A stretch of DNA of 64,000 bases from contig NZ_QVMN01000003.1 of NCBI RefSeq assembly GCF_010501075.1, positions 262,292 through 326,291 on the forward strand. Direction: 5' to 3'. The translations under genes were made by a program, and so were the position numbers. The notes below the pieces were generated by a model, which saw nothing but the letters and a program-made list of their open reading frames with translations, was not told where the DNA came from and did no database searches. Below, one piece after another: positions 10,314-25,464 of the stretch. The first letter of the stretch is position 1, and each line of letters begins with the position of its first letter. The stretch comes from Dysgonomonas sp. 25 (lineage in GTDB: Bacteria; Bacteroidota; Bacteroidia; Bacteroidales; Dysgonomonadaceae).

Positions 10314-10746
10314 ACTTTAATGTGTAATAATGTATTTATAAGAACTTATTTAGGTCGTGGGTCAATTAGTTTTCTCTCTATATTGTGCTGCTTAAATTAA
10401 GCCAAATGCCCACTCTGGGTAACAAACGTTTTGTAATTTGTTAAAGCAAATGTATCAAAATTTACAAAAACACTGTAAAGATATTCTGTTTTAACTTAAA
10501 ATTAACATACCCCTTTTTTCCAAAAGTATATATACAACAAATATAGGATTGGTGTACCACTTTTCGAATATGAATTGAGATAAGAAAAAACTGTGTTTTG
10601 TCAAAGAGTAACGAAAGTCAATCACCTATGTATAAGCACTGTAAATAATTCTCTATGATAAAAAAACTATATAACATTTGTCAATACACCCTTTTGGGGC
10701 GAAAAAAACATATTTTTACATTTCAATACCTAAAAATTCATTATTT
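10314..10746. other. Divergent intergenic region between vgrG and the DUF3244 gene
   Basis: The 433 bases are strongly AT-rich and hold promoters for both directions. The only good match I find is the rightward one at 10693-10724. I see no ORF, tRNA or strong hairpin. Confidence 0.6.
10693..10724 (+). promoter_or_regulatory. Promoter of the DUF3244 gene
   Basis: TTTG (10693-10696), a 20-bp spacer and TACATTTC (10717-10724) match the Bacteroidetes -33/-7 pattern except for the last base. The start codon follows at 10747. Confidence 0.5.
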
Positions 10747-11145
10747 ATGAAAAAAATTGTACTACTATTGGCAATAAGCTTCACCCTCACCAATGCCTCA
10801 GCTTCCGTTTCTCTATATGGTGAAACTTTATCACTATATAATGACGGTACTGGAGGTGCAAGTCCCGGAACAAGACCAAGAATGAAAATGTTTTCTGTCC
10901 CATTTGTGAACGCTACCATTGAATCCAATAAATATATTGATGTAATTTTCCAATTAAACGGAGTCGTGGAAATAGAAATTACAGACAGTATGGGTTTTGT
11001 AAGAGACAGACAAGTTATTGATACAGTAGAGACAGGTTGCCAATTACGTATTGATATTTCTACTTTATCAAATGGAGAATACAAAATTAAGTTTAAGAAA
11101 AAAGCGAGTGGCGAAATTCTTTCTGCAAATTTCTTCATCAATTAA
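10747..11145 (+). CDS. DUF3244-like small secreted protein
   Basis: A 132-aa protein with a signal peptide (MKKIVLLLAISFTLTNASA) and one compact beta-sandwich-like domain, with VEIEITDSMGFVRDRQVI and LSNGEYKIKFKK strands as in DUF3244 proteins. These are exported Bacteroidales proteins of unknown role. The ATG at 10747 is chosen because the signal peptide starts there; upstream in-frame sequence lies inside the promoter. It is followed by a terminator and then by a TPR-HTH regulator in the same direction, a pairing that suggests a link, though this is not proven. Confidence 0.7.
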   Translation: MKKIVLLLAISFTLTNASASVSLYGETLSLYNDGTGGASPGTRPRMKMFSVPFVNATIESNKYIDVIFQLNGVVEIEITDSMGFVRDRQVIDTVETGCQLRIDISTLSNGEYKIKFKKKASGEILSANFFIN

Positions 11146-13306: not shown

Positions 13307-13771
13307 TTATAAAAATAATTTTAGCCTGTTTCCTCTGTAAAACATAGTAGGATTTATATAATAAATTCCATTCCGATAAGCATTAGCTAATACATTATGT
13401 TTTTTTAGTTCTGATATAGCACGATAGATTGCCGCATCACTTTTATAACCTGTTTCTTTTTTTGCCTTCGCCATATTTAGTGTTATTATATCATCATAGC
13501 CCATGTGGTCGATGATAAACAATAAAATCCTTGTAGCTGCCGCACTGAGCTTCGGTAATACCTTTCTTCCCGCAGCATACATCTTTACAAAGCGTTCCGA
13601 ATCATATTGCTTCTCTCTGATAACAGCATTATAGCCATGCCCTCTTATCTCTCCTGTATCTTCATCTACCATTGAGACAGTATTACCTCTGGCACAAACC
13701 GCAGTTCTTGTTCCCAACTTTAGGCTATCCAAATAACCAATAAAAGGATTATTCTCATTAAACTTTTTCAT
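13307..13771 (-). CDS. RepL-like replication protein
   Basis: A 154-aa protein with a winged-helix region: LPKLSAAATRILLFIIDHMG, then AIYRAISELKKHNVLANAYR, ending with YYINPTMFYRGNRLKLF. The last motif is typical of RepL/firmicute-plasmid replication proteins. By family it would bind an origin and start replication. In an integrated element it suggests an excised, replicating form. It lies beside a terminase-like gene and a 1-kb non-coding block that could hold the origin. No primase or helicase is seen, so host proteins would be needed. Confidence 0.68.
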   Translation of the reverse strand: MKKFNENNPFIGYLDSLKLGTRTAVCARGNTVSMVDEDTGEIRGHGYNAVIREKQYDSERFVKMYAAGRKVLPKLSAAATRILLFIIDHMGYDDIITLNMAKAKKETGYKSDAAIYRAISELKKHNVLANAYRNGIYYINPTMFYRGNRLKLFL

Positions 13772-14167
13772 GTCACTCAGGTTTTATGCTCATTTTGTAG
13801 AGCTAACATGTACAAACCAAGCATATTTTAAACATGCATATAATTGTTTATCAATAAATTACATTTTTCTTATATATATCTTAATAAAGAGAACATACTA
13901 TATACATGCCATTAATCTGTACTATCACAGTTTATCTATATTTTTAACATTTTACATTGGAAAAATAAATGGGTAAAATCTAAAGGAATTTCTCCCAGAA
14001 AAAAACCAAAAAAATTTAGCTACATCGAAATGGGATTTTGGCTCATTTCGTTAGGGGGTGGGGGCTACCCTTTGCGCCGCTTTTCGGTTGGGGTTGCTCC
14101 CTGTCCTTTTGTCTCTTTCCTTCCCTCGCTTATACATATAAGCAAGGATAAACAGTAAATCAATTAT
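13772..14167. other. Non-coding region between the RepL-like and terS-like genes
   Basis: The left half is very AT-rich. The right half has CGAAATG (14026-14032) pairing with CATTTCG (14044-14050), a G-run with a nearby CTACCC, and GCTTAT (14128-14133) pairing with ATAAGC (14138-14143). The structures would suit an origin, a transfer site or terminators; I cannot choose among these. Confidence 0.4.
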
Positions 14168-14737
14168 TTAACTATTTGCCTGTTGTTTTTTCTCCTGTGC
14201 AGCCTTGTAAAGTGAGCAAACATTGCATCTTAACGGCAGATAGTATCTTATTGTATTGTCGTCTGTCTGTTCCTTTTCCTTCTTCCACCCTTCCAAGTCT
14301 GATATTTTTAACAGTATTTCAGCTTTCAATTTTGCATCGTGTGTATTATCGGCAAGTTTATTTAATTCGCTTATCGTTTCGGTCTTTGTGCGGTTTGTTT
14401 CCTGTGTGTTGTTTCCCTGTTCCGTTCCTGCTCCGTTCCCTTCGTTCTGGGTTGTGCTGTGTCGGTTCTGGTCGGTTGCAAATAGTTCGTTTTTTCGTTC
14501 CTCTATATAGAACTTGCATTTATCCGCATTTATCCAATTTCGAGCTTGTGTATATATGCTTTGTCGGTTGGCTTGGCTGTTGCTCGGTCTGCTCTGCTCG
14601 TATGCAATTACAACTTTTTTGCTTGTTGGTAACTTACTAACTATATAAGCATCTAAACAAAAACGCTCTAATATAGAAAGCTTCTCTATTTCCTTTTGTC
14701 GCTCCTGTGCTGTCTTTGGAATTTTAATATTTGCCAT
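14168..14737 (-). CDS. Phage small-terminase-like protein
   Basis: A 189-aa protein. Residues about 20-85 have the HTH-containing pattern of small terminase subunits (ERFCLDAYIV, SIYTQARNWINADKCKFYIE). A Gln/Asn/Thr-rich linker (90-120) follows, then the typical C-terminal helix pair (ISELNKLADNTHDAKLKAEI) and RYYLPLRCNVCSLY with a CxxC. By family it would select DNA for packaging. No large terminase, portal or capsid gene is visible, so the element could be a phage satellite that redirects a helper, or the gene could be a leftover. The family call is by pattern recognition only. Confidence 0.5.
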   Translation of the reverse strand: MANIKIPKTAQERQKEIEKLSILERFCLDAYIVSKLPTSKKVVIAYEQSRPSNSQANRQSIYTQARNWINADKCKFYIEERKNELFATDQNRHSTTQNEGNGAGTEQGNNTQETNRTKTETISELNKLADNTHDAKLKAEILLKISDLEGWKKEKEQTDDNTIRYYLPLRCNVCSLYKAAQEKKQQANS

Positions 14738-14783
14738 CTGTGTTTCTTATTTGGTTTGTGTTGTTTGGGCTATTAACGAATAA

Positions 14784-14819
14784 AGCCCGAAACGGTGCAT
14801 TTATGCATCATTTCGGGCT
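14784..14819 (-). promoter_or_regulatory. Leader hairpin upstream of the terS-like gene
   Basis: AGCCCGAAA (14784-14792) pairs perfectly with TTTCGGGCT (14811-14819), with a second inner stem TGCAT/ATGCA. It lies 47 bases before the minus-strand ATG and could be a 5' leader structure or a terminator. Confidence 0.45.
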
Positions 14820-14997
14820 GCGTGCCTCTTTAGTATTAAACAAAGATAGTTCTTTCTGTGGTGGCTTGCAAGGGGGCTTATTTGGCTTGTTTCGGGCTAT
14901 TCTCGTGCATTGCTTACTTGCTCATTATCAAGAAAATACCACATTGTTAAGAAATATTAAATACAGATTATTTCTCTAAAAACCCCCAACGAAATCG

Positions 14998-15029
14998 TTT
15001 GGGTTGTTCGGGTTTATGTTGTATCTTTA
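14998..15029 (+). promoter_or_regulatory. Promoter at the head of the 15-kb non-coding block
   Basis: TTTG (14998-15001), a 20-bp spacer and TATCTTTA (15022-15029) match the -33/-7 pattern with one change at the last base. It would start transcription near 15036, in front of no ORF but of many helices. Confidence 0.6.
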
Positions 15030-15035
15030 TATTAT

Positions 15036-15400
15036 CAAAATGAGAGAGTTACACGGTTGTAACTGATGAAAACAAAGTCCGTTTTAAAGGTACATATAAC
15101 GTCAAAAAACCTTTCAGGCTGTGCGACCTGCCAAGCACGTTAAAACCAGTTACACTCTCATGTCGGACTATTCGAGCAATAGACTGAAAAAAACGGATTG
15201 AACCGTTTATCCTCCGTGAAGGTTAGCGTTATTTATCGTATTGGGCGGAATATAAGCAGATAAACAGACCACCGCATCTGGCTCGTATCGTTAAGTGAGA
15301 AATATTAACGGCTCGTATGTAGAAAGAACAACGGGGGGGACTAACAACTCTAAAAAGCGAGGGCAAAGCGACTTATTTTGTGTGTTTAGGTTGCTTTAGT
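15036..15400 (+). ncRNA. Candidate large structured RNA of the element
   Basis: No credible ORF is present. Helices seen by eye: ATGAGAG (15040-15046) with CTCTCAT (15155-15161) and GTAACTG (15059-15065) with CAGTTAC (15147-15153), closing a 120-nt domain; AAAGG/CCTTT (15086-15114); CTATT/AATAG (15168-15182); AAACGG/CCGTTT (15191-15208); CAGAT/ATCTG (15257-15280); CGTTAA/TTAACG (15289-15310). GTAACT can also pair locally with AGTTAC (15047-15052), a possible switch. A direct repeat GGCTCGTAT (15280-15288, 15310-15318) flanks the last helix. The 3' end is not defined. It may alternatively be an origin region. I match it to no known RNA family. Confidence 0.45.
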
Positions 15401-15643
15401 CAAAACGTATAAGTAAACATCTTACAAATGTAACGACTTATAACGGAACAAAATACACATTTAACTATTTGAACTATTATAAATACATGCTATCAAAATA
15501 CAAACGACTGGCAACGTTTATGATTATAGGGTATTGTATTTTTTAAATATTGCCAATATGCAGCATTAAAAACTCCTTTGTTTAAGTCTTTTTGTTCTGG
15601 CTTGTGATGAACAACCGAACGACTAAAAAGCGACAAAACGACT
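15368..15643 (+). repeat. Iteron-like CGACT repeats
   Basis: Six short (A/G)CGAC(T) units occur at 15368, 15433, 15504, 15619, 15630 and 15638, two followed by TTAT. The last three lie inside a palindrome AAGCGA (15628-15633) / TCGCTT (15651-15656). They could be Rep-binding sites; the unit is short and spacing irregular. Confidence 0.25.
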
Positions 15644-15709
15644 TTTTAAATCGCTTGCCTCCCTTCTGTTATTGGTTTAACATTGGGGAACAAATAAAAG
15701 ATAAAAAAA

Positions 15710-15744
15710 GCAGGGTTGCGAAGTTTGGCGACTGTCAACCCTGC
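15710..15744 (+). terminator. Strong hairpin before the small-gene run
   Basis: GCAGGGTTG (15710-15718) pairs perfectly with CAACCCTGC (15736-15744) around a 17-base loop. It has no clear T-run, so it may be a leader structure of the genes that follow rather than a terminator. Confidence 0.4.
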
Positions 15745-15763
15745 GAAAGCTATTAACTTTCAT

Positions 15764-15797
15764 GTAAGGGAAAAACGAGTCTCCGCCTTACACGGAG
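15764..15797 (+). promoter_or_regulatory. Alternative leader hairpins upstream of the 125-aa gene
   Basis: GTAAGG (15764-15769) can pair with CCTTAC (15786-15791), while CTCCG (15781-15785) can pair with CGGAG (15793-15797). The two overlap and exclude each other, 8 bases before the ATG, so they could control translation. Confidence 0.35.
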
Positions 15798-15804
15798 CAA
15801 ATTT

Positions 15805-16182
15805 ATGCAAAATTCTACCAATTTAAAAACTTCCGACATAATTACTTCATTGACAAACGAAGTATATCGAATAGCCAACAACAACCCTTCTGGCTTTACC
15901 CTCAATTTAAAAACAATGCAGCTTGTCAATACTGGCTTTGTGGCTGCCTATAAAGAAACACAAAATAGTTTTGGAGTATCAGGGCTTCAAAACGTTATAA
16001 AATACGCTTTGTTAATTGGTGCTTCTGTTATCGGTGGATGGTACAACACAGATAACGGACAATATTATTTTGATTGTTCGCAAGTATTTGAGAACCTTAA
16101 CGATGCAGCAATTTTCGGAGTAAATAACGAACAATTAGCAATATTCGACTTAAACACATCTACCGAAATAAAACTTTCTTAA
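15805..16182 (+). CDS. Hypothetical element protein, head of the small-gene run
   Basis: A 125-aa soluble protein with no motif that I recognise. It has the look of an alpha/beta protein: FTLNLKTMQLVNTGFVAAYK, then YALLIGASVIGGWYNTDNGQYYFDCSQVF and an acidic C-terminus. The segment around ALLIGASVIGGWY is hydrophobic but too short and too mixed for a membrane helix. It follows two competing hairpins and precedes two more small genes with gaps of 15 and -8 bases, so the three form one transcript ending at the hairpin at 16638-16670. Confidence 0.6.
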   Translation: MQNSTNLKTSDIITSLTNEVYRIANNNPSGFTLNLKTMQLVNTGFVAAYKETQNSFGVSGLQNVIKYALLIGASVIGGWYNTDNGQYYFDCSQVFENLNDAAIFGVNNEQLAIFDLNTSTEIKLS

Positions 16183-16197
16183 ATCTAACATACTGTA

Positions 16198-16437
16198 ATG
16201 AAACTAAAAATAATCAAAGGTTATCATCTTACGGCGGCCGAACGAAAATCAATAACAAAAATGCTCGAAAGAGGATGGACGAAAGCAATCAATCTACCCA
16301 AAACAAAAAGCTACAAAATAACCAATCGAACACCTGAACAAATTGACGTAAAAATAGGTACGAAAGCCGTTTGGACGATTGGGGACGTGGCAAAGTGGAA
16401 ATATCAATATCTAACAATCGAATATAAAAATGAATAA
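16198..16437 (+). CDS. Small basic hypothetical protein
   Basis: A 79-aa Lys-rich protein (MKLKIIKGYHLTAAERKSIT, ending WTIGDVAKWKYQYLTIEYKN). The basic character suggests nucleic-acid binding, but nothing more specific can be said. It overlaps the next gene by 8 bases, which indicates translational coupling. Confidence 0.55.
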   Translation: MKLKIIKGYHLTAAERKSITKMLERGWTKAINLPKTKSYKITNRTPEQIDVKIGTKAVWTIGDVAKWKYQYLTIEYKNE

Positions 16438-16630
16438 AGGGATTAAATATTACAAACGAGAAAAAACTCCCAACGGTTTTACAAAATGGGAAGAAATTGA
16501 AAATTTGCCTTCCGATATATTTTGTGTGAACGCAAATAATAATTGGATGCAGGCGATGACAATAGACGGAAAAGGATTTCTATACACTAATAAAGATTCA
16601 ATTATTCAATACTACAAATCATATATTTAA
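16430..16630 (+). CDS. Small hypothetical protein
   Basis: A 66-aa protein (MNKGIKYYKREKTPNGFTKW) with a predicted beta-rich pattern, ending YYKSYI. It is the third gene of the 15.8-16.6 kb set and is followed within 8 bases by a strong terminator whose loop holds the first copy of the AACCCGACCAAA motif. Confidence 0.55.
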   Translation: MNKGIKYYKREKTPNGFTKWEEIENLPSDIFCVNANNNWMQAMTIDGKGFLYTNKDSIIQYYKSYI

Positions 16631-16637
16631 ACAAACA

Positions 16638-16670
16638 AGGTGCGCAAACCCGACCAAAGGAAGCGCACCT
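16638..16670 (+). terminator. Terminator with the repeated motif in its loop
   Basis: AGGTGCGC (16638-16645) pairs perfectly with GCGCACCT (16663-16670), followed by CTTTTATT. The 17-base loop is the motif AAACCCGACCAAA plus GGAA. Confidence 0.75.
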
Positions 16671-16823
16671 CTTTTATTAACTAACTAACCCGACCAAAAC
16701 GAATTAATTAATTAAGACAAAGTTATAAAAAAAAGATTTCGTAATTCCGAAAACTTCCATTTTGAAAAATATTTGCAAAAATAGCAATGGAGTAACATTG
16801 TCATAACAATAAACAATAAAACG

Positions 16824-17196
16824 ATGAATACATATTTTGTAAACACAGCCGATGGAATTATCAAAGCGTCAGTACAATTCAATCCATTATGGGGCAAATA
16901 TCAGGCAATTATTGACGGCACAGTCTACGGACAATTTGAGCCAGAAAGAGAAGCCGATGCAATCGAGTATATTAAAAATTCTTTCCTTACAGAGAATATA
17001 ATCGTTCCCGACTGCACACTGCTAATCAGTGATGAAAGCCCTTTATCCAATCAGGTTAAAAAAAATCACTGGCGACAATTACAACACCACTGATTTTGAA
17101 GATTTGTACAAATCAACATTGATAAAGCATAGAAAATCAGGCTTAATCATCCGAACAATCTCAAAAAGAGAGATTAAAGAACAACTCGAAAAATAA
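16824..17196 (+). pseudogene. Frameshifted (or slippage-expressed) small element gene
   Basis: The frame from 16824 ends at 17093 after 89 aa with SNQVKKNHWRQLQHH. Removing one A from the A8 run at 17058-17065 opens the frame onward as KKITGDNYNTTDFEDLYKS to a TAA at 17194-17196, giving about 124 aa. That fills the otherwise empty 120 bases before the next motif. The N-terminal part (MNTYFVNTADGIIKASVQFN) is unrecognised. The run could be a real mutation, a sequencing slip or a programmed slippage site. An upstream leader ACAATAAAACGATG recurs before the 58-aa gene at 21729. Confidence 0.6.
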
Positions 17197-17216
17197 TAAA
17201 CTAAAAACCCGACCAA

Positions 17217-17687
17217 ATGACATTAGATGAATATTGCAATCAAACCGAACCACTACCAAACCCAAAAGTAGTATTGAAAAAATCAGAGTACACAAAACAC
17301 CTGACAAGAAAAGAAAAGGGATATTGGTATTCAAATATCGTTATCCCGAAACTGGAACAACGTTTCGGGATAACTGATACCTATATCCAAATGAACGACA
17401 GTAAGCACCTTTGGTCAAGACACCCCGACACTGGAAACCTCCACAAATTAAGCGTTTTCCACTTGCCCGAAGAAGATGATGAACCGCAGGAAATAACCCT
17501 GTACCGTGAATTTCTGGAGGAAAATTTAAAATTTATAAGCGATTGGAGAGAGAAACACCCGCACCCGAAAAACTTGGAGGAACACAACGCCGAATATATT
17601 AAGCAATATACCGCATTTATCCATTCTGTAAAAGAAAAATATTATCTGGACGAATCCGATATTAAATTCTGGCTAACATTCAAATAA
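17217..17687 (+). CDS. Hypothetical protein of the motif-led array
   Basis: A 156-aa acidic, helix-rich protein of unknown family (MTLDEYCNQTEPLPNPKVV; RKEKGYWYSNIVIPKLEQRF; HNAEYIKQYTAFIHSVKEKY). It has no signal peptide or membrane segment. The ATG shares its A with the end of a motif copy (17206-17217), so the motif takes the place where a ribosome-binding site would lie. Next-gene gap is 22 bases. It is probably co-transcribed with the other array genes. Confidence 0.6.
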   Translation: MTLDEYCNQTEPLPNPKVVLKKSEYTKHLTRKEKGYWYSNIVIPKLEQRFGITDTYIQMNDSKHLWSRHPDTGNLHKLSVFHLPEEDDEPQEITLYREFLEENLKFISDWREKHPHPKNLEEHNAEYIKQYTAFIHSVKEKYYLDESDIKFWLTFK

Positions 17688-17709
17688 CCAACAAAACCCC
17701 GACCAAATT

Positions 17710-18516
17710 ATGAAAAAGATAACATACAAAGAATTATTAGCAGCCTCCGACAGCTTTAGAAAAACAGTTGAACAATATATCGAAAGCAAACAATATTATG
17801 AGGATAAAAAAATCCTCTGCAACAAGATATTAGACGCTATCAACGAAAAAAGCAAAGCTGACAAGCAACTCAGGATAGAAGCATATAAATACTTCATCTG
17901 CCAATCAGATTATAAGACAATAAAACTTCGGGAAATATGCAAAGCAGCAGGATATGATTTCTGGGCTGACAAAAACAGTGATTTAAGTATATCAAATGCG
18001 ATAAACACCATTGATACAGCACACGTTTATCACGAAATAAATCTGTACAAAGAAACATTCACATTGCAAAAGCTATCCAAATATGAAGTTAAAGACGGCG
18101 ATGTAGCTTTGAAAACGGGATATGCAGGAATCACAGTTCAAAACTTTTTAGAAAATTACCTGAAAGAAAAAGGTTATAACCTGACAATGACACAATTATA
18201 CCGTGTCAATTTTAAAGATAATGAAACCTGTACAACTTGGAGAAATGCAGATATTAATCCTGTTACAGTTGACATTTTGGCTATCGAACTCAATTACAGG
18301 TATGTATCTATTATTGCCGACTTAGGAGACGGAGCAATGCCTATCGCTCTCGACATGAGGGAAGGTGGAAATGTAGTTGTAACTCCTGTATATAATAATT
18401 ACGATTGGATAAAAGAGGCGACTTATTACCAACTACAAGCCATCTGCGATGTCGTTGCCGAACGCTTCGAGGATAGTAAAAACGAATTATTATCACTAAA
18501 ACCAAAGGTTAAATAA
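17710..18516 (+). CDS. Hypothetical protein of the motif-led array
   Basis: A 268-aa protein that I cannot assign. The N-terminal 100 residues are basic and helical (SFRKTVEQYIESKQYYEDKK), the middle includes KTGYAGITVQNFLENYLKEKG, and the C-terminal part is beta-rich with VDILAIELNYRYVSIIADLG. It is soluble, without Cys clusters or NTPase motifs. A motif copy with an extra C lies at 17696-17707, two bases before the ATG. It is one of the longer unknown genes of the array and a good target for structure prediction. Confidence 0.6.
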   Translation: MKKITYKELLAASDSFRKTVEQYIESKQYYEDKKILCNKILDAINEKSKADKQLRIEAYKYFICQSDYKTIKLREICKAAGYDFWADKNSDLSISNAINTIDTAHVYHEINLYKETFTLQKLSKYEVKDGDVALKTGYAGITVQNFLENYLKEKGYNLTMTQLYRVNFKDNETCTTWRNADINPVTVDILAIELNYRYVSIIADLGDGAMPIALDMREGGNVVVTPVYNNYDWIKEATYYQLQAICDVVAERFEDSKNELLSLKPKVK

Positions 18517-18545
18517 TTATTAATCAATAAAAACCCGACCAAAAA

Positions 18546-19430
18546 ATGAAAACAATTCAAGATTTAAAACAATTAGCGTATGACGCTCACAGAGGTACTT
18601 ACTCAAATCCCGAATACACTTCGACCAAATTTGTAGAGGATTATACGAACGACCTGAACGACTTACTCGAACAAATCCCTTCCGATTACCATTCGTGGGT
18701 AAGAGAAAAGTATATTTCGTTGCTGAGTAAGTGGTTAAGCTCACAAACTTCTATCTTTTCCCCTTTCATTTCGGGACGTTCCAATTATCCTGCCAAAAGG
18801 ATGCAGAAACTAAACGGATGGGCTGACAATCATTACAAAAACTTTTCCGATTGGCGTGAAAACATTGTCAAACGTGTAAAACGATGGGAGAAAAAGAAAA
18901 ACTACTCCCTCAGTTCCGAGATAGAAGAAAAACATGAAAAGCTATCCGAGCTTCAAGATTGGCAAGAAAAAATGAAGGCAATCAATAAGATTGTGCGAAG
19001 CAAAAAGCTGTCTGAGATTGAGATTAACGAAGAACTGACAGTTTTATATGGGCTTTCCGAACAAACTATCCATAAACTTCTCAATCCTCGCTATTCATAC
19101 GAGAAAAAAGGCTTTCAGGGTTGGCAACTGTCAAACAACAATGCCACAATCAGGAACACCAAAGCCCGTATCAAAGAACTCGAACGCAGATTGGAAGCCG
19201 AAGGACAAGACAACGAAGAATACGAAGTTAAAGGCGTTCGGGTAGAACTTGATATTGCCGAAAACCGTGTAAAACTATTCTTTCCTCGTAAACCTGTAAA
19301 GGAAAACAGGCGGGAACTAAGCAACAACGGTTTCAGGTGGTCATACAACAACGATTGTTGGCAAGCATATATGTCAGCAGAGCCGAGAGTTAAAGCCATG
19401 CTCGAAAATATGGATATACGGTACGAATAA
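18546..19430 (+). CDS. Array protein with a C-terminal GFRWS-type domain
   Basis: A 294-aa protein. Residues 1-215 are charged and mostly helical (WADNHYKNFSDWRENIVKRV, with a coiled coil around 115-150). The last 75 residues hold a motif that I recognise from Bacteroidetes mobile-element proteins: VELDIAENRVKLFFPRKP, then LSNNGFRWSYNNDCWQAYM, usually written NGFRWSP..WQR. In other proteins this domain follows DUF3560/DUF1738-like parts; its function is not known. A motif copy ends 2 bases before the ATG. Confidence 0.65.
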   Translation: MKTIQDLKQLAYDAHRGTYSNPEYTSTKFVEDYTNDLNDLLEQIPSDYHSWVREKYISLLSKWLSSQTSIFSPFISGRSNYPAKRMQKLNGWADNHYKNFSDWRENIVKRVKRWEKKKNYSLSSEIEEKHEKLSELQDWQEKMKAINKIVRSKKLSEIEINEELTVLYGLSEQTIHKLLNPRYSYEKKGFQGWQLSNNNATIRNTKARIKELERRLEAEGQDNEEYEVKGVRVELDIAENRVKLFFPRKPVKENRRELSNNGFRWSYNNDCWQAYMSAEPRVKAMLENMDIRYE

Positions 19431-19552
19431 TAATAGAACGATTCAGAACCAACAGTCATAGACACGGCAGACAATTTAAAATAACTAACCATAGAGATTG
19501 CTTTCTGCCTAACAGTCTGGGTATTGGTACTGAATTTATAATACAAAATATA

Positions 19553-19795
19553 ATGGAAGTAAAATTGAAAGATTCAGATATGACAAAAATGAACAATCTG
19601 AACGAAAAAAACAAATGGGCTATTTCTAAAGAAGAAATAATCGAACTAACTCGAAAGCATAAAATAGCGAATGAGTACGATAAAGCATTAATTGAATACC
19701 GATTAACCGACATTAATTTTCATACTTATGTTGGTCTATTGTATCATAGGAAATATGAGGAACTGGAAAAATTGATAGAAGAAGATTTTGAATAA
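19553..19795 (+). CDS. Small hypothetical protein without the motif
   Basis: An 80-aa charged helical protein (SKEEIIELTRKHKIANEYDK). It is the one gene inside the array region that lacks the AACCCGACCAAA leader; its 122-base upstream gap instead holds AT-rich sequence with no clear promoter. It may have entered the array separately. Confidence 0.5.
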   Translation: MEVKLKDSDMTKMNNLNEKNKWAISKEEIIELTRKHKIANEYDKALIEYRLTDINFHTYVGLLYHRKYEELEKLIEEDFE

Positions 19796-19817
19796 AATAC
19801 TATAAAAACCCGACCAA

Positions 19818-20630
19818 ATGAAGCAATTAAATATCGAAGTCGTCCTCCGATACGAAGTCCCTTACTATCCAAGTAAGAGACACAAATATCAACATACCCA
19901 AATACAGGAGGAAAAGCTAAAAGTTAGTATTCCTATTGTAGAAAAAGGCGAAGAAAAAATAGCCTTTATTGTAAAAGGCAGCAGAGGAAAAGAAAGCTAT
20001 TACTCGCACAATGAGCAACTTTGGCGAAAAATTAAATGGCACGAAAAGCATCACAGTAAAAATGGCTATTATCCCTTAAAAGAACTGATATGGTATGTAC
20101 AACACACCGCCCGGACACTTCCTTATTATGCTGAACATGGCAGAGTCCTTCGCAATGACAGCGATATACTTTGCGACAAGGCTTATCAAATGAAAGCATT
20201 ACAGGAATATATAAGCAACTATCTGATTATCGACAAATATGTTTGCCAACCTGTCGGAGAACCACGATATGTAATTAATACTTTCGGATTAGGTCACAAT
20301 CACGGTGGTACATCATTGTCTGTCACAAATTGGTATAATTCCAATATCCGAAATACCTCTTATTTCCCTGCCAATAAACGCAAAGAAGCGATAGCCTACG
20401 GCAAAAAGGTAGCCAAAGGTAGGGGCGATACCGAATCAGTAAGAACGATTGGCAAATGGTATGATATAAAAATCCTCATGCCCGAATGTGTTACCTGTGA
20501 CCCGATGAACGAACACGGAGAAGGCGACCCCTTCTTAAATCGACTAAATGGAATAATTAACAGTACAGAATCAAAAAACGAAGCAGGGCTTATGGTAATG
20601 TTAGCCACTGCAAGCGAATTAAATAAATAA
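19818..20630 (+). CDS. Hypothetical protein of the motif-led array
   Basis: A 270-aa protein, unrecognised. The N-terminal part is beta-rich (MKQLNIEVVLRYEVPYYPSK), then come a His/Tyr-rich region (KWHEKHHSKNGYYPLKELIW), NTFGLGHNHGGTSLSVTNWY and a C-terminal CVTC. The HNH-like clusters of His and Asn might bind metal, but no full nuclease motif is present. The ATG overlaps the motif copy at 19807-19818, and two more copies follow its stop at 20629 and 20656. Confidence 0.6.
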   Translation: MKQLNIEVVLRYEVPYYPSKRHKYQHTQIQEEKLKVSIPIVEKGEEKIAFIVKGSRGKESYYSHNEQLWRKIKWHEKHHSKNGYYPLKELIWYVQHTARTLPYYAEHGRVLRNDSDILCDKAYQMKALQEYISNYLIIDKYVCQPVGEPRYVINTFGLGHNHGGTSLSVTNWYNSNIRNTSYFPANKRKEAIAYGKKVAKGRGDTESVRTIGKWYDIKILMPECVTCDPMNEHGEGDPFLNRLNGIINSTESKNEAGLMVMLATASELNK

Positions 20631-20668
20631 CCCGACCAATTTTATTAATTTTTTAAACCCGACCAAAA

Positions 20669-21376
20669 ATGGTAACAAAAACATTCAATCCAGTAAAAAA
20701 GAAGTATGCACTGAACAATTCGTATTTCAAAGGTAACTATGGAGGCTATTCTCAACGCCCTGTTACTCCTTACGAAGTATTGTTGTATTACAAACAACAT
20801 GGAGAACTGCCGTTCGCTTACAATGGCGATAATTGGCTTTATGACTGCTATTGCGAGTATCAGAAACGAAACGGTGTATATCATTCGCAATTCTTTACAC
20901 CCGATGCCACCGCAGAGCGAATGGCTGAAATAGCTTTTGATTATTTTGACGAAGAAAAGCCCGTCCTCGATGCCTGTTGCGGTTTCGGACAATTAACAAG
21001 GGCATTGCTTAAAGAGGGCTTTCAGGCTTATGGCTATGATTTTTCTTACGAAATGGTAGAATTATTCAAAGAATACACCAAATGCGATGCAGCCCACACT
21101 GACTTCCAGAGCTTCAATGTGAAGTACAAAAATATTATGTCGAATCCTCCGTATGAAGTGCCATTGCTTACCGAGTTTCTTGAGTGTACATACAATATTC
21201 TGGAGGACGATGGTACACTAATCCTGCTTATCCCGAACGGTTTTATTGATAAAACCCGACCCAAAAGAACAGCCGATATATTGGCAAAATATAGGCTATT
21301 ATACAGCGAGCCAATGACCGAAGAATTTTTAAGGACAAAAGTTCATTGTGAAATCGTTGTCCTCGAAAAACGATAA
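20669..21376 (+). CDS. Orphan NPPY-type DNA methyltransferase-like protein
   Basis: A 235-aa class I SAM-dependent methyltransferase. Motif I is LDACCGFGQLTRALL (Asp101, Gly105, Gly107) and motif IV is NPPY at 159-162, which points to adenine-N6 (or cytosine-N4) methylation of DNA. Residues 75-95 (QFFTPDATAERMAEIAFDYF) resemble the start of the type I/IIG fold. No endonuclease is nearby, so it is an orphan, as often found on mobile elements to protect DNA or set regulation. It has the last motif copy 1 base before its ATG. Confidence 0.75.
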   Translation: MVTKTFNPVKKKYALNNSYFKGNYGGYSQRPVTPYEVLLYYKQHGELPFAYNGDNWLYDCYCEYQKRNGVYHSQFFTPDATAERMAEIAFDYFDEEKPVLDACCGFGQLTRALLKEGFQAYGYDFSYEMVELFKEYTKCDAAHTDFQSFNVKYKNIMSNPPYEVPLLTEFLECTYNILEDDGTLILLIPNGFIDKTRPKRTADILAKYRLLYSEPMTEEFLRTKVHCEIVVLEKR

Positions 21377-21386
21377 TCATTAATCC

Positions 21387-21408
21387 GAAGGGCGAGAAAT
21401 CGCCCTTC
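21387..21408 (+). terminator. Hairpin with GAAA tetraloop after the methyltransferase
   Basis: GAAGGGCGA and TCGCCCTTC form a perfect 9-bp stem closed by GAAA. The downstream sequence is AT-rich but lacks a long T-run; it probably ends the motif-led transcript. Confidence 0.6.
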
Positions 21409-21422
21409 ATAAATATAAAATT

Positions 21423-21716
21423 ATGCCACAATTCAATTTTTATCAAGATAGAAAATTAATCATCTGGGAACGTACCCACTTTACAATAGAAGCAGAAAAC
21501 GAAGAAGAAGCAATTAAGAAGTTCGAAAGCGAAAATGCTGTTTACATCGAAAATATGAACGAAACAGAAAAAGGAAAAAGTGAGATACTTTCCGAACGAA
21601 CCGAAATACTAACGATGGACGATAACAACGGCTTCGCTACTATTGAAATCTATATTGACAATAATAGCTCCGACAACCTAATTTATCATAACGGAATAGA
21701 TATTGAGGACAGATAA
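21423..21716 (+). CDS. Small acidic hypothetical protein
   Basis: A 97-aa very acidic protein (FTIEAENEEEAIKKFESENA; IDNNSSDNLIYHNGIDIEDR). Acidity of this kind suggests a DNA-mimic or antirestriction-like role, but no family is recognised and the idea is weak. It lies just after the hairpin at 21387-21408 and 12 bases before the next small gene. Confidence 0.55.
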   Translation: MPQFNFYQDRKLIIWERTHFTIEAENEEEAIKKFESENAVYIENMNETEKGKSEILSERTEILTMDDNNGFATIEIYIDNNSSDNLIYHNGIDIEDR

Positions 21717-21728
21717 AACAATAAAACG

Positions 21729-21905
21729 ATGTGGGAAATAATAGATAACAACGGCACTATCCATTCAGGAAGTGAGGAAGAAATGCGACTTGCATTTGAT
21801 ATAATGACCGACAACGAAGCCTATTCGGAAGAAGAAGTTGCACAATGGGCTTGCGGTTGGGACGGCGACTTACGATTGATACAAATACACGCTATATCAC
21901 ATTAA
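21729..21905 (+). CDS. Small conserved-looking element protein (58 aa)
   Basis: A short gene read directly: it starts MWEIIDNNGTIHSGSEEEMR and ends DGDLRLIQIHAISH, with a TAA at 21903-21905. The pattern WEIID..GTIHSGSE...W.GDLRLIQIH is one I associate with small proteins of Bacteroidales conjugative elements; function unknown. It has the leader ACAATAAAACGATG, identical to that of the gene at 16824. It is acidic and soluble. Confidence 0.6.
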   Translation: MWEIIDNNGTIHSGSEEEMRLAFDIMTDNEAYSEEEVAQWACGWDGDLRLIQIHAISH

Positions 21906-21916
21906 ACCGAACGATT

Positions 21917-22189
21917 ATGACTTACTTCGAATTTATAAAAGAAAAACCAACCCTATACGGCTCAACAACCGACCAGAACTATAAACAACGAATCGGAACA
22001 TATCAGCCATGCTTCAATAAGTACACCAATACAATGTGTTATTTCTTTATGGCTAAGAACGGACGGAAAACCCAATACGGCTTTACCCTGAAACGAGCCT
22101 TCCACCTCTTTCGCTTTGGTAAACTATCTACTAACCCCGAAAAAGGCAACCCAGACAACTATATTAGCTATGATAAATCCCCTCCGTAA
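21917..22189 (+). CDS. Small hypothetical protein
   Basis: A 90-aa basic protein (MTYFEFIKEKPTLYGSTTDQ; GRKTQYGFTLKRAFHLFRFG). I chose the ATG at 21917, after the stop of the 58-aa gene, rather than the longer frame from 21845 that would overlap it. The family is unknown. A 112-base regulatory-looking gap with repeats follows. Confidence 0.55.
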   Translation: MTYFEFIKEKPTLYGSTTDQNYKQRIGTYQPCFNKYTNTMCYFFMAKNGRKTQYGFTLKRAFHLFRFGKLSTNPEKGNPDNYISYDKSPP

Positions 22190-22210
22190 AAGAATATCTG
22201 AAATAACTTT

Positions 22211-22298
22211 GCTAAATTTACGGAAGAAAATAAACAAAATGGCTTACCTTAAAACATTGTAAGCTAAATTTTTACCAACAACTTTTCGTAAATTTTTA
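22211..22298 (+). promoter_or_regulatory. Operator-like repeats before the HTH-recombinase pair
   Basis: GCTAAATTTACGG (22211-22223), GCTAAATTTTTACC (22263-22276) and CGTAAATTTTTA (22287-22298) share a TAAATTT core; CTTAC and GTAAG flank the middle part. They could be binding sites of the HTH protein encoded next. Confidence 0.4.
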
Positions 22299-22301
22299 AT
22301 T

Positions 22302-22586
22302 ATGAGGAAAATAGAACTTAACTTTGACGAAGCATGGCAATACTTGAAATTCTTATGCGATATGGGATTACAGAAATCTCAAATAGCAGAATTTGTAGGT
22401 TGTAGCCGTAGGGATATATCCGCAGCAATGAACGGAATCATAGAAGCTAAGACCAACAAGCCAATTAAATTGCCAGAAAAATATCATCCGAAAATTATTG
22501 AATTAGTACAAGTTCTCCAACTGGAAACTTGGCGAAAACAAATGAAAACAAATGAAAACAAAAATATCATTCAAAGACGCATTTAA
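22302..22586 (+). CDS. Small HTH DNA-binding protein
   Basis: A 94-aa protein with a helix-turn-helix: MGLQKSQIAEFVGCSRRDIS, residues about 25-45, as in Cro/excisionase-like regulators. Its 3' end overlaps the recombinase gene by 35 bases in another frame, so the two are coupled. It may be a recombination directionality factor or an autoregulator acting on the repeats just upstream; both are inference. Confidence 0.6.
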   Translation: MRKIELNFDEAWQYLKFLCDMGLQKSQIAEFVGCSRRDISAAMNGIIEAKTNKPIKLPEKYHPKIIELVQVLQLETWRKQMKTNENKNIIQRRI

Positions 22587-23400
22587 TCGGAAATTCTCTC
22601 GTGAGAAATATATACTCGACCATATAAAAAAATTCAATAATAATAAACATGCCGAATGGTGTGATTTTACGAGAGTTTTCCTAATTGAATTAGTAGAATA
22701 TTTTAAAGAAACATTATCACCCAACTCCGCACGAACATATTGTGCGAACCTAAAAAGCCTCCTGAACAAATACTCGGAAGAAATCGAAATCCCCTGTAAA
22801 GATTATGCTCCATTACTCTCGCTGAAAAAGACAGGTGTAATCAATACTTACCTCACACCCGAAGAAATACAACAAATTATCGACTATCTACCTGAAAGCG
22901 AAATGGAACACGCTATCAGGAATCAATTTCTTCTTTCCTGCCTCACAGGTATGCGGTTCTCCGATGTGATAAATTTGGACGCTACCAATCTGAACAATTC
23001 AGAAATCGTTTATGTAGCAATAAAAACAAAGACCGCCGTAACAACCATAAGTAGTCCCGTAACCGAATTTCTGATAGCAGAACAAGAAAACACATACTAT
23101 CCCGCATGGAAATTCAACGAACAAATTAAGATTATCTGCAAAAAAGCAGGAATCAATAGCAAGGTGAAAGTAGTTCGAGGTGGAGAAACAGAAACAGGCG
23201 AGAAGTGGGAATTTGTTTCCAGTCATACAGCACGGCGTTCCTTTGCAACCAACATATACCTGAAAACATTAGACCTCTTTCTCGTATCTACGCTGATGGG
23301 GCATAGCGATGTCAAAATTACACAAGGCTATCTATGTTGTGCTTTCAGGAAGAACAATCTGGCTATGGACTATGTAAATCAGTTCCAAATAGCTATATAA
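22552..23400 (+). CDS. Short tyrosine recombinase (XerC/D-like)
   Basis: A 282-aa recombinase with a SAM-like N-terminal domain (EYFKETLSPNSARTYCANLK) and a full catalytic set: Arg135 (TGMRFSD), His225 and Arg228 (SSHTARRSF), His251 (MGHSD) and Tyr260 (QGYL). It has no arm-binding domain, so it resembles Xer-type or inversion/resolution recombinases more than the tRNA-targeting integrase at 24202. Being next to an array with identical short repeats it could act there, but nothing shows this directly. Dimer resolution of an excised replicating form is another option. Confidence 0.8.
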   Translation: MKTKISFKDAFNRKFSREKYILDHIKKFNNNKHAEWCDFTRVFLIELVEYFKETLSPNSARTYCANLKSLLNKYSEEIEIPCKDYAPLLSLKKTGVINTYLTPEEIQQIIDYLPESEMEHAIRNQFLLSCLTGMRFSDVINLDATNLNNSEIVYVAIKTKTAVTTISSPVTEFLIAEQENTYYPAWKFNEQIKIICKKAGINSKVKVVRGGETETGEKWEFVSSHTARRSFATNIYLKTLDLFLVSTLMGHSDVKITQGYLCCAFRKNNLAMDYVNQFQIAI

Positions 23401-23482
23401 ACAATCCCTTCATGGTACTAAAGGATAATTAAGCAGCCGAGAATCAAACTCGATATATATTAAAAAATTTAAACGAATTATT

Positions 23483-24082
23483 ATGGGTATGGAAAACCAA
23501 AACGAAAGAACAGGTAACATTGCATTTGATAATGTAATTGAAAGTGTAAAGCTATTACACGAGTACATACAGGCAAATGACGATGAAACTACATTTTCGA
23601 TAGTTTTAGGTGGTGCTTTAAAAGACGAAACTACGATGCACTGTATTAATGTTGTAGTCGGCGACCTGAACAATCCCCCAATATTTGACTCAGCTATGCA
23701 ATCACTTGTAAATACCATGAAGGAAAGCGAATTGATTGCCAAGCTCATTTTTACAGCGTATCACACTTATAATACAAATAAAAACGTCAAAGTCGTAAAG
23801 CTATCGGTGGACTCCCCATTAGATGCACTATACCTATTGAAAAATATAATTAGCAACAATATTGATATTCAGAATTTAGACGACTTACCACCAGATTTAC
23901 TAAACGAAATAATACAAAATATGCCCTCCGACTTGAAAAAGAAATTTATGGAGAGGGATTTTTGTGACGACCCCGACTGTCCGACATGCAAGTTACGGCG
24001 CAAACTAATACTTAATGACATGAATATTGACTTTAATAATTTTTTCTTCGGAAATAGCCCAGACCAAGAAAAAGGTAATTAG
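23483..24082 (+). CDS. Hypothetical element protein
   Basis: A 199-aa acidic protein of unknown family. The N-terminal half is alpha/beta (TFSIVLGGALKDETTMHCIN). The C-terminal half has a DLPPDLLNEIIQNMPSDLKK helix and a CDDPDCPTCKLRR cluster (Cys at about 171, 175 and 178) that could bind a metal. It is the last plus-strand gene before the integrase, ending in a bidirectional terminator. Confidence 0.6.
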   Translation: MGMENQNERTGNIAFDNVIESVKLLHEYIQANDDETTFSIVLGGALKDETTMHCINVVVGDLNNPPIFDSAMQSLVNTMKESELIAKLIFTAYHTYNTNKNVKVVKLSVDSPLDALYLLKNIISNNIDIQNLDDLPPDLLNEIIQNMPSDLKKKFMERDFCDDPDCPTCKLRRKLILNDMNIDFNNFFFGNSPDQEKGN

Positions 24083-24201: not shown

Positions 24202-25464
24202 TTATGCGACTTTCTTAGCCTTTTTCATTATTATTTCACTCCCTCCAGTCTTAGCTCCCCCTATTTCTTCCTGTCTTTCCTCCTTCGGACTAAATATCGC
24301 ATCCAAAACTTGATTATTCAGTTCATCAATAGGGCTAAAGTCCACATCAATATATATTCGACTTGTTCTATGCGCCGAAGCATGATTCAGACAAAAGCCT
24401 ATTAATTCATCAGAAGCCTTACATTTTCTATGTGCTACTGTTGCCCATGTATGACGTAATGTGTAGGTAGTCATTTTTTCAATATTCGCAATCTCGCAAA
24501 GTCTCTTTAGTCCTTTGTTTATTGCTTTCACAAAATCTTGTTCATCAGAATATCTTTCCTTGAAATCGAATAAGTAATCACTTTCCTCTTTTCCCTTATA
24601 TTTCTCAAATAAATCAATTATTTCGGGTTTTATACTTATTTCATAATAAGCCTTATCCTCTCTGGTAGAAGTTGTTTTGTGCCGGAAATAACAAAGTTTT
24701 CCCTCTTTTAAGTGCATCTTTTCCATGTAATATAAATCCACAGCATTTATTCCAACTAAATATATCATAATTTTAGCTACATCTTTTGCAAATACAGACC
24801 TTTTCGTGTCAGGAGTAGTTGAAAATAATACCCTTAATTTATCGACATCTACTGACCTTTTTGGAGGAATATCGGCTTTCGGTATCTTTATACCATGAAA
24901 AGGTCGGTTTGAGAATCGAATCCTGCCGCTATCGTAATCATTATATTCTTCATCCCCTGCCATAAACATTGATTTTATGTTTGTAGGATATTTCTGTTTA
25001 GCCCTTGCGCTGTCCTTTAAGGATTCAATCCATTTTTTTATTTTTGCGGAAGTTAAATCTTGAAAAGCAATATCCTCACCAAAAAATTTTCTAAACGATG
25101 TTAAGGCATCTCTATACCCATCCGCAGTCCTTTCCCTTCCCTGATTTCTCAGACCTTGTATAAATCCTTCACAGAAAGTTGTAAAAGAGATGGTTTCTTT
25201 TTCCAACGTTATAAATTCCACGACTTCTTTCACTGTCCATCTTTCAATTTCTTTGGCATTTAGTTTATCCAAATACCCTTTAATTTTTATACCACATTGA
25301 GCTAATACCATTTGGTCGATAATTTCCCCATTTTTGTAACTACGGTCATGTACATACATATCCGTTCTTATAAATGCTATCTTTCGGTTATGAGTCACAC
25401 GAATATACACAGGGTAAGTTCCATCACTACGCTTTGTTTTCACATCAGCTTTAAAAGTTGCCAT
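24202..25464 (-). CDS. tRNA-proximal tyrosine integrase of the element
   Basis: A 420-aa integrase in the three-domain layout of Bacteroidetes elements: arm-binding domain (residues 1-85, MATFKADVKTKRSDGTYPVY), SAM-like core-binding domain (95-175) and catalytic domain. Lys263, Arg337 (TLRHTW), His361 and Tyr371 are present. The usual first Arg (GxRxxD) is replaced: the site reads GINAVDL at 238-244. IntDOT-type integrases are known to lack that Arg too. It points away from the tRNA-Val, with GTAAAC repeats between, as for an enzyme that inserts at the tRNA 3' end. The C-terminal tail after 390 is Lys/Gly-rich. Confidence 0.88.
   Translation of the reverse strand: MATFKADVKTKRSDGTYPVYIRVTHNRKIAFIRTDMYVHDRSYKNGEIIDQMVLAQCGIKIKGYLDKLNAKEIERWTVKEVVEFITLEKETISFTTFCEGFIQGLRNQGRERTADGYRDALTSFRKFFGEDIAFQDLTSAKIKKWIESLKDSARAKQKYPTNIKSMFMAGDEEYNDYDSGRIRFSNRPFHGIKIPKADIPPKRSVDVDKLRVLFSTTPDTKRSVFAKDVAKIMIYLVGINAVDLYYMEKMHLKEGKLCYFRHKTTSTREDKAYYEISIKPEIIDLFEKYKGKEESDYLFDFKERYSDEQDFVKAINKGLKRLCEIANIEKMTTYTLRHTWATVAHRKCKASDELIGFCLNHASAHRTSRIYIDVDFSPIDELNNQVLDAIFSPKEERQEEIGGAKTGGSEIIMKKAKKVA

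What the first reader, a model, noticed from the sequence alone, without database searches (positions are those of the whole stretch)
16646..20667. Eight-copy intergenic motif AACCCGACCAAA placed at start codons of an unknown gene array
The same 12-base word, or a one-base variant, occurs eight times in 4 kb, always plus strand and always between genes. Five copies end 0-5 bases from, or overlap, the next ATG, where a ribosome-binding site would lie, and one sits in a terminator loop. Chance cannot explain this. Options: an element-specific translation-initiation signal; an operator on mRNA for a phage/element RNA-binding protein or small RNA that controls all array genes together; or short recombination repeats that turn each gene into a movable cassette. 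The recombinase at 22552 is a candidate for the last option.
Basis: partly seen in the sequence, partly recalled or inferred. Interest (0 to 1): 0.78.

Follow-up and report, generated by a model that had tools for sequence, protein, structure and literature searches.

The report
Prophage-private motif at start codons
A dormant virus in a bacterial genome carries the same 12-letter word in front of five neighbouring genes and in a hairpin loop, and a related virus has a different word of its own in matching places, which suggests a private switch that controls a block of viral genes together.

Summary
AACCCGACCAAA occurs six times exactly and twice with one change in 16647-20667, always plus strand; five copies touch or lie within 2 nt of a start codon and one lies in a hairpin loop. 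The rest of the 3.74-Mb genome has one exact copy, inside a 1063-aa ORF. The array belongs to the non-structural, probably early, region of a prophage. A related prophage in Dysgonomonas alginatilytica has a syntenic array with its own word, AACCTCCGACAAA (8 copies with at most one change), at start codons and in a syntenic hairpin loop and tail. Neither prophage has an array of the other's word. All 13 motif-bearing starts lie 13 nt or more behind the previous stop; 0 of 11 closer starts carry it. I found no strong encoded antisense partner and no consistent 16S pairing. Best reading: a phage-specific RNA operator or start signal read by a factor that co-evolves with it. It works like the Start-Associated Sequences of cluster K mycobacteriophages and is laid out like CsrA sites, but is a member of neither. 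The cassette option is disfavoured.

The parts
16638..16670 (+). Hairpin AGGTGCGC/GCGCACCT whose loop holds motif copy 1 (16647-16658)
   Evidence: MFE of 16631-16700 is -15.5 kcal/mol; the MFE also draws a 2-bp pair inside the loop. A syntenic hairpin AGGGTGCGT/ACGCACCCT in L140 holds that prophage's own word in its loop.
16687..16698 (+). Motif copy 2, tail copy 3' of the hairpin, predicted unpaired
   Evidence: Exact; tail copy syntenic in L140 (rc 7730)
17206..17217 (+). Motif copy 3, overlaps the ATG of gene 17217-17687 by one base
17696..17707 (+). Motif copy 4 (one mismatch), ends 2 nt before the ATG of gene 17710-18516
18532..18543 (+). Motif copy 5, ends 2 nt before the ATG of gene 18546-19430
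   Evidence: The orthologous start in L140 carries AACCTCCGACAAA.
19807..19818 (+). Motif copy 6, overlaps the ATG of gene 19818-20630 by one base
   Evidence: The orthologous start in L140 carries AACCTCCGACCAA.
20629..20640 (+). Motif copy 7 (one mismatch), overlaps the stop codon of gene 19818-20630
20656..20667 (+). Motif copy 8, ends 1 nt before the ATG of gene 20669-21376
21253..21264 (+). One-mismatch copy inside the methyltransferase gene, probably chance
16824..17196 (+). First gene after the hairpin, no motif. Reads as two frames (16824-17093 and 17029-17196) of one family, apparently frameshifted at an A-run near 17058; the homolog in L140 is one open frame. A candidate for the trans-acting factor on position only.
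17217..17687 (+). Motif-bearing gene, unknown protein
   Evidence: No Pfam, NCBIfam or PHROG match
17710..18516 (+). Motif-bearing gene, unknown protein; 58% identical homolog in L140
18546..19430 (+). Motif-bearing gene; its best named match is a phage 'primase' family (phrog_19458)
19818..20630 (+). Motif-bearing gene, unknown protein; 55-56% identical homolog in L140, distant ones in plasmids
20669..21376 (+). Motif-bearing gene, SAM-dependent methyltransferase
22552..23400 (+). Tyrosine recombinase at the end of the region. Relatives also present in phages without the array, so not tied to the motif.
24202..25464 (-). Second phage-type integrase, near tRNA-Val
15710..15797 (+). Conserved structured leader before the array: hairpin (15710-15718/15736-15744) and H-type pseudoknot (15763-15769/15786-15792 and 15781-15785/15793-15797)
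   Evidence: Three prophages, 63 of 63 cells paired, 8 of 21 pairs changed on both sides

Best explanation
The word is a phage-specific RNA element in the ribosome-landing zone of non-structural (probably early) genes of a temperate phage. It most likely acts at the mRNA level. A trans-acting factor that co-evolves with the word, most simply an RNA-binding protein made by the prophage, recognises about ten mostly single-stranded nucleotides (core CCCGACC here, CTCCGAC in the relative). It would bind best at the hairpin-loop plus tail pair and also at each start, and so set translation of the array genes together. Genes whose start lies close behind the previous stop carry no copy and would follow by translational coupling. 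SHOWN: the words, their start-codon spacing, the predicted hairpin and tail, their confinement to the array, and another word at matching places in the related prophage. INFERRED: action on RNA, the existence and nature of the factor, relative affinities, coupling, and control of translation. I lean to repression because the sites lie where initiating ribosomes bind, but activation is not excluded.
For: (1) Not chance and confined: 0 of 1000 simulations for each of two models in each of two prophages. With at most one change there are 9 copies in the 56 kb around prophage A, eight in the array and one in its last motif-bearing gene, and 8 copies of the other word in the 70 kb around prophage B, all in its array. 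(2) Start-tied: for 12 of 13 sites (B 9540 left out for its 110-nt gap) the core G lies 4-10 nt before the ATG (sd 1.9), against sd 8.8 from the upstream stop; 0 of 20,000 uniform placements were as tight and as close. (3) Matching places, different word: hairpin loop, tail, and the starts of the orthologs of 18546 and 19818 carry word A in A and word B, or a near form, in B. No array of either word showed in the other genomes scanned (101 genomes each, own included). (4) 13 of 23 starts with a gap of 13 nt or more carry the core against 0 of 11 closer starts, Fisher p = 0.0018. (5) Sites are predicted mostly unpaired: mean 0.83 (8 sites) and 0.79 (9 sites) against 0.50 and 0.56 for 100 random positions each. 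(6) Bacteroidia ribosomes fail to recognise Shine-Dalgarno sites (abstract of PMC9976891), and the motif contains none. (7) E3, 85% identical in terminase and capsid, lacks the array and has no clear homolog of the four array proteins shared by A and B (one 40-residue match to the B relative of 19818), so the words go with that gene set.
Against: No RNA-binding protein was recognised: no informative family hit, no useful fold (mean pLDDT 36 and 53), no solved relative. Only two prophages carry the array, so co-evolution rests on one comparison. Random positions reached the mean unpairedness of the sites in 4% (A) and 11% (B) of cases, and the MFE of both hairpins draws a 2-bp pair inside the loop that uses motif bases, so unpairedness alone is weak. 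Three non-coupled starts inside the arrays lack the motif (A 19553, B 7768, B 9043), as do seven further starts with gaps of 13 nt or more outside them. B also has mixed words (AACCTCCGACCAA; CCCCGACCAG). Cluster A stoperators show that DNA sites can behave similarly (one orientation, phage-specific words).
Confidence: 0.5

Rival explanations
1. Element-specific translation enhancer read by the ribosome itself or by a host factor, with no phage-made regulator.
For: It sits where a ribosome-binding site would lie, at non-coupled starts, in a group of bacteria that does not use Shine-Dalgarno pairing (abstract of PMC9976891). Word A has an 8-bp complement in its host's 16S (-16.3 kcal/mol; 0 of 100 shuffled words did as well and 1 of 100). 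By recall the segment is helix h15.
Against: Word B has no comparable partner in its own host's 16S locus (-13.5; 17 of 100 shuffles as good or better), and the segment matched by word A reads differently there. The related phages E3 and LoVEphage have no such array. The loop and tail copies are not at starts.
Confidence: 0.2
2. DNA operators of the stoperator kind: a phage repressor binds the double-stranded word in one orientation and blocks transcript elongation through the region.
For: One orientation, short intergenic placement and phage-private words match cluster A mycobacteriophage stoperators (passages of PMC6550527; intergenic placement partly recalled). A small putative DNA-binding protein (22302, weak below-cut-off HTH matches) has relatives in B and E3 (33-36% identity).
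Against: Spacing is fixed to the ATG and not to the stop. Copies are confined to one 4-7 kb block of 56-70 kb, whereas stoperators lie throughout their genomes. Two syntenic hairpins put the word in a loop. A relative of protein 22302 also occurs in E3, which has no array.
Confidence: 0.15
3. Target sites for a small antisense RNA.
For: A C-rich, accessible 10-12 nt word would suit a seed, and a hairpin-loop copy could act as a sponge.
Against: Apart from the antisense of the copies themselves, the best site for word A in 56 kb is -15.8 kcal/mol (plus strand), against -18.1 to -21.0 for the copies. For word B in 20 kb it is -15.5 (minus strand), and no plus-strand site is among the 12 best (cut at -14.5). 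A host-encoded RNA is not excluded.
Confidence: 0.08
4. Recombination repeats that make each gene a movable cassette.
For: Gene content and order differ between A and B (the orthologs of 17710 and 18546 are swapped), and a tyrosine recombinase closes the region.
Against: Orthologs carry the local word, not a travelling one. Relatives of the recombinase sit in E3 and LoVEphage, which lack the array. 12 nt is short and asymmetric for a tyrosine-recombinase core site (established knowledge).
Confidence: 0.04

Closest known systems
Start-Associated Sequences (SAS/ESAS) of cluster K mycobacteriophages (PMC3203893: section 15 part 1 of 2 and passages seen; PMC12699233: passages seen)
   Same: Short asymmetric word, nearly always in one orientation, a few nucleotides before start codons, in the non-structural region, nearly absent from the host, function unproven in the text I saw; about half of the sites have inverted repeats upstream.
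   Different: The word is unrelated and has no Shine-Dalgarno core (SAS contains AGGAG). One SAS consensus serves the subclusters described in 2011 (the ESAS repeats differ), while here the start word itself differs between two related prophages. Here one copy sits inside a hairpin loop. The host is in Bacteroidota.
Stoperators of cluster A mycobacteriophages (PMC6550527, passages seen)
   Same: One orientation; each phage has its own version of the word; repressor preference for the cognate word is shown there.
   Different: They lie throughout the genome and stop transcript elongation on DNA; here sites are locked to start codons in one block and also occur in a predicted hairpin loop.
CsrA/RsmA sites (PMC7652899, passages seen)
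   Same: [quoted passage not shown] two sites 10-63 nt apart can be bridged. Loop and tail copies here are 28 nt apart in A and 26 nt in B.
   Different: Core is CCCGACC or CTCCGAC, not GGA. No CsrA family hit among the array proteins scanned. Private to the prophage.
T4 RegA translational repressor (recalled, no call)
   Same: One phage protein acting at the starts of many early genes.
   Different: Recalled RegA sites are loosely conserved; here the word is nearly invariant within a phage.

Membership tests
Cluster K SAS | Short asymmetric repeat within a few nt upstream of start codons, one orientation | tested here: met
   (three of the eight copies are in the loop, the tail and at a stop codon)
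Cluster K SAS | Restricted to the non-structural gene region; nearly absent from host | tested here: met
Cluster K SAS | Consensus GGGATAGGAGCCC with a Shine-Dalgarno core | tested here: not met
   Words are AACCCGACCAAA and AACCTCCGACAAA
Cluster K SAS | 17-bp inverted repeats upstream of about half of the sites (ESAS) | tested here: inconclusive
   None beside a start-associated copy among the 25 longest of 76 inverted repeats shown for 14000-24000; no dedicated search was made
Shine-Dalgarno ribosome-binding site | Pairing with the 3' end of 16S rRNA | tested here: not met
   The best partner of neither word in its own host is the 3' end, and the two hosts give different partners (16S loci with flanks scanned)
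Stoperator | Sites spread over the genome, promoter and non-promoter | tested here: not met
   all copies of the own word with at most one change lie in the array region
Stoperator | Bound as DNA by a phage repressor | not testable with these tools
   Needs a binding assay
CsrA/Rsm regulon | GGA core in loop and ribosome-binding site | tested here: not met
   The core lacks GGA
CsrA/Rsm regulon | CsrA-family protein in the element | tested here: inconclusive
   No CsrA hit among the proteins scanned, but not every prophage protein was scanned and the host was not searched
Recombination cassettes | Unit gain or loss bounded by repeats that travel with the gene | tested here: not met
   Orthologs carry the local word; one comparison only

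The most novel reading that the evidence does not exclude
Temperate Bacteroidota phages can run a private translational code: a phage-made RNA-binding regulator reads one 12-nt word at the starts of a whole gene block and in a hairpin decoy, and regulator and word co-diverge so that related prophages in the same family of hosts do not cross-talk.
Probability: 0.35. Interest if true: 0.82.

Novelty: new variant of a known kind. Interest (0 to 1): 0.62.

Why it matters
Start-associated words in phages were described in 2011, and the two papers I saw in part name no reader for them. Here the word differs between two related prophages while its places stay alike, which makes the question directly testable: swap the word, or put each word in front of a reporter beside each array. 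It is also a candidate for sequence-specific control of translation starts in Bacteroidota, whose ribosomes ignore Shine-Dalgarno sites.

Tried and rejected
T6SS or conjugative-element reading (baseplate-hub gene, integrase, tRNA): rejected, because terminase, portal, capsid and tape-measure genes lie next to it. Exact-word searches in viral contigs for more arrays: 65 stretches and 47 stretches; only the two known prophages had more than one match. Protein searches for more relatives, own genome counted: 19818 in the class set 1 of 395; 18546 in the order set 9 of 393, the other eight remote; 20669 in relatives 15 of 101, at best 45% and most far weaker; 17710 in relatives 2 of 101; recombinase in the family 2 of 101 at E <= 1e-30; the 15805 family in the order set 7 of 393, the other six remote. 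The genome-contig scan, with two peptide patterns, confirmed one locus of 229 stretches, the D. alginatilytica copy. Start-word discovery found no comparable array in the seven hit loci L116-L122 (repeated words in L117 were CRISPR-like repeats, and L121 had GAAAGGAGC at three starts), nor in L142-L145, L147 and L158-L164 (L146 was only scanned for the word); ORF lists of five of L158-L164 were read by eye. LoVEphage, Dulem virus 40 and MT835533 show no such array; MT835533 shows ordinary GGAGG-type sites. 16S pairing and an encoded antisense RNA: not supported. AlphaFold of the 17710 and 16824 families: mean pLDDT 36 and 53; the fold search with the second had no hit at E <= 0.001. Attachment-site repeat near tRNA-Val: no exact 14-mer repeat in the held stretch. 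Literature: three searches aimed at such a motif gave one paper, on another subject by its listing, and none; within this library I saw no report of it in Bacteroidota.
Full report
CHECK. The finding is real. AACCCGACCAAA has 6 exact copies and 2 one-mismatch copies in 16647-20667, plus a ninth one-mismatch copy at 21253 inside a gene. Five copies touch or stop 1-2 nt short of an ATG (genes 17217, 17710, 18546, 19818, 20669). In 1000 simulations under each of two Markov models no 11-mer with at least 3 G+C reached the 7 copies seen. The whole genome has 7 exact copies: these six, and one on contig C55 inside a 1063-aa ORF. Of 101 genomes (the own and 100 relatives) 38 have an exact match, the own included; the others have at most 5, with no cluster among the places listed, and the reversed-word control gives similar numbers.

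WHAT THE ELEMENT IS. The DNA left of the window (L124) carries terminase, portal, major capsid and tape-measure genes, and window 8133-10313 is a phage baseplate hub. The array is therefore part of a prophage's non-structural region, closed by a tyrosine recombinase (22552), a second integrase (24202) and tRNA-Val. That it is expressed early is inferred. The terminase is 54% identical to that of Bacteroides LoVEphage.

THE RELATED PROPHAGE. A search of 101 genomes with protein 17710 gave one hit besides the own, 58% identical, on a contig that is Dysgonomonas alginatilytica DSM 100214. Its prophage (B) is 89% identical in terminase and 87% in capsid, and 35-73%, mostly 50-68%, in shared non-structural proteins. 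Its non-structural region (L140, reverse complement) has AACCTCCGACAAA: 4 exact copies, 4 with one change and, at the start of gene 6606, one with two, all in gene direction. Copies sit at the starts of 6606, 7108, 9540, 10063, 12497, 13346 and 13606, in a hairpin loop (7691) and in a tail (7730); gene 11974 has a variant, CCCCGACCAG. Hairpin and tail are syntenic with window 16638-16698; the stem differs but stays paired. A has no near copy of word B; B has two single-mismatch matches to word A, one inside a gene of the array (rc 8447) and one far from it. ACCTCCGACAAA is absent from the window's genome and found 6 times in D. alginatilytica, all in this array; in the other 99 of 101 family genomes it occurs at most 3 times.

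A THIRD PROPHAGE. The same D. alginatilytica genome has E3, 85% identical to A in terminase and capsid, with the same kind of leader and recombinase. It shows no homolog of 16824, 17710 or 18546 among its ORFs of 40 aa or more, and for 19818 only a 40-residue 32% match from the B protein. It has no array; one AACCCGAACCAAT precedes one start, a relative of B 9540 (42% over 65 aa). So the array of words goes with a replaceable gene set, not with the phage backbone (inference).

STATISTICS OF PLACEMENT. I listed 15 genes in A and 21 in B by hand (overlapping minor ORFs left out, two split genes counted as one each), which gives 34 starts with a measurable gap. Of 23 starts 13 nt or more behind the previous stop, 13 carry the core; of 11 closer starts, 0 do (Fisher p = 0.0018). 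The threshold was chosen after looking; 6 and 20 nt give p = 0.029 and 0.0033. Inside the core arrays the counts are 13 of 16 against 0 of 6. None of 76 ORF starts of 60 aa or more in window 26001-64000, both strands, has the core. The core G lies 4-10 nt before the ATG at all 13 starts. For the 12 sites used the spread is sd 1.9 nt to the start and 8.8 nt to the stop; 0 of 20,000 uniform placements match.

MECHANISM. RNA-level action is favoured by the lock on start codons, the hairpin loop and tail in both prophages, predicted unpairedness (0.83 and 0.79 against 0.50 and 0.56) and the single orientation. A reader that changes with the word is favoured because 12-nt words, too short for ordinary homologous recombination (established knowledge), are nearly uniform within each prophage and different between them. 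Pairing with 16S was tested on the 16S loci with flanks: word A has an 8-bp match in its host (-16.3), word B only -13.5 in its own host, and the 16S segment matched by word A differs in D. alginatilytica. As cross-controls, word B reached -12.7 in host A (29 of 100 and 22 of 100 shuffles as good) and word A -14.9 in host B, at a place downstream of the 16S 3' end (0 of 100 shuffles as good). Antisense: apart from the copies' own antisense strand nothing better than -15.8 (56 kb, A) or -15.5 (20 kb, B). The layout resembles CsrA on glgC, with a loop site and a ribosome-site copy (passages of PMC7652899), loop and tail being 28 and 26 nt apart, but the core is not GGA.

COMPARISON. Cluster K SAS (PMC3203893) is the nearest kind; its authors left open whether a host or phage RNA or protein reads it. 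This case adds an unrelated word type in Bacteroidota, a word that differs between relatives, and a loop copy. Stoperators (PMC6550527) are the nearest DNA-level kind and show that phage-private words follow their reader; they differ in being genome-wide and, in what I saw, not tied to starts.

LIMITS. Two arrays only; one comparison of words. No expression data. The IMG/VR contigs that match A and B appear to be the same genomes, not independent evidence. The element ends were not determined.

Noticed in passing
15710-15797 (A); L140 rc about 5500-5590 (B); L170 minus strand 11519-11632 (E3): A conserved structured leader ahead of the array in A and B and at the matching place in E3: hairpin with an almost invariant loop (AAGTTTGGCGAC) followed by an H-type pseudoknot and GCAAATTTATG. 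63 of 63 cells paired, 8 of 21 pairs changed on both sides, 0 of 500 shuffles (structure drawn on row A). No Rfam match at gathering and only chance-level ones below it. In E3 the first gene shows no homology to that of A and B. A candidate new cis-regulatory RNA.
   Followed up: partly
16824-17196: One gene family split over two frames at an A-run near 17058; the D. alginatilytica homolog is a single open frame. Either a pseudogene or slippage.
   Followed up: partly
L140 rc 10063-10949: The homolog of 18546 is itself split into two frames in the D. alginatilytica prophage.
   Followed up: no
13310-13771 (-): RepL-like plasmid replication protein (Pfam PF05732) beside the array; homologs in B (78%) and E3 (67%), which hints at a plasmid-like stage.
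   Followed up: no
L125 6441-8549 and L124 18534-19928: A C39-peptidase ABC exporter and a second ABC transporter gene inside or beside the prophage, a possible cargo.
   Followed up: no
22552-23400 and 24202-25464: Two tyrosine recombinases at one end of the non-structural region, an arrangement also seen in LoVEphage and B.
   Followed up: partly
L235 10858 and 11217, perhaps 12671 (LoVEphage): Two, perhaps three, genes of LoVEphage start after a similar CACCCTTTAAATTTTG stretch, which looks like a Bacteroides-type promoter close to the start (promoter consensus recalled).
   Followed up: no
L117 9792-15197: What looks like a CRISPR array with repeats of about 46 nt in an unrelated relative, met while scanning for start-associated words.
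   Followed up: no
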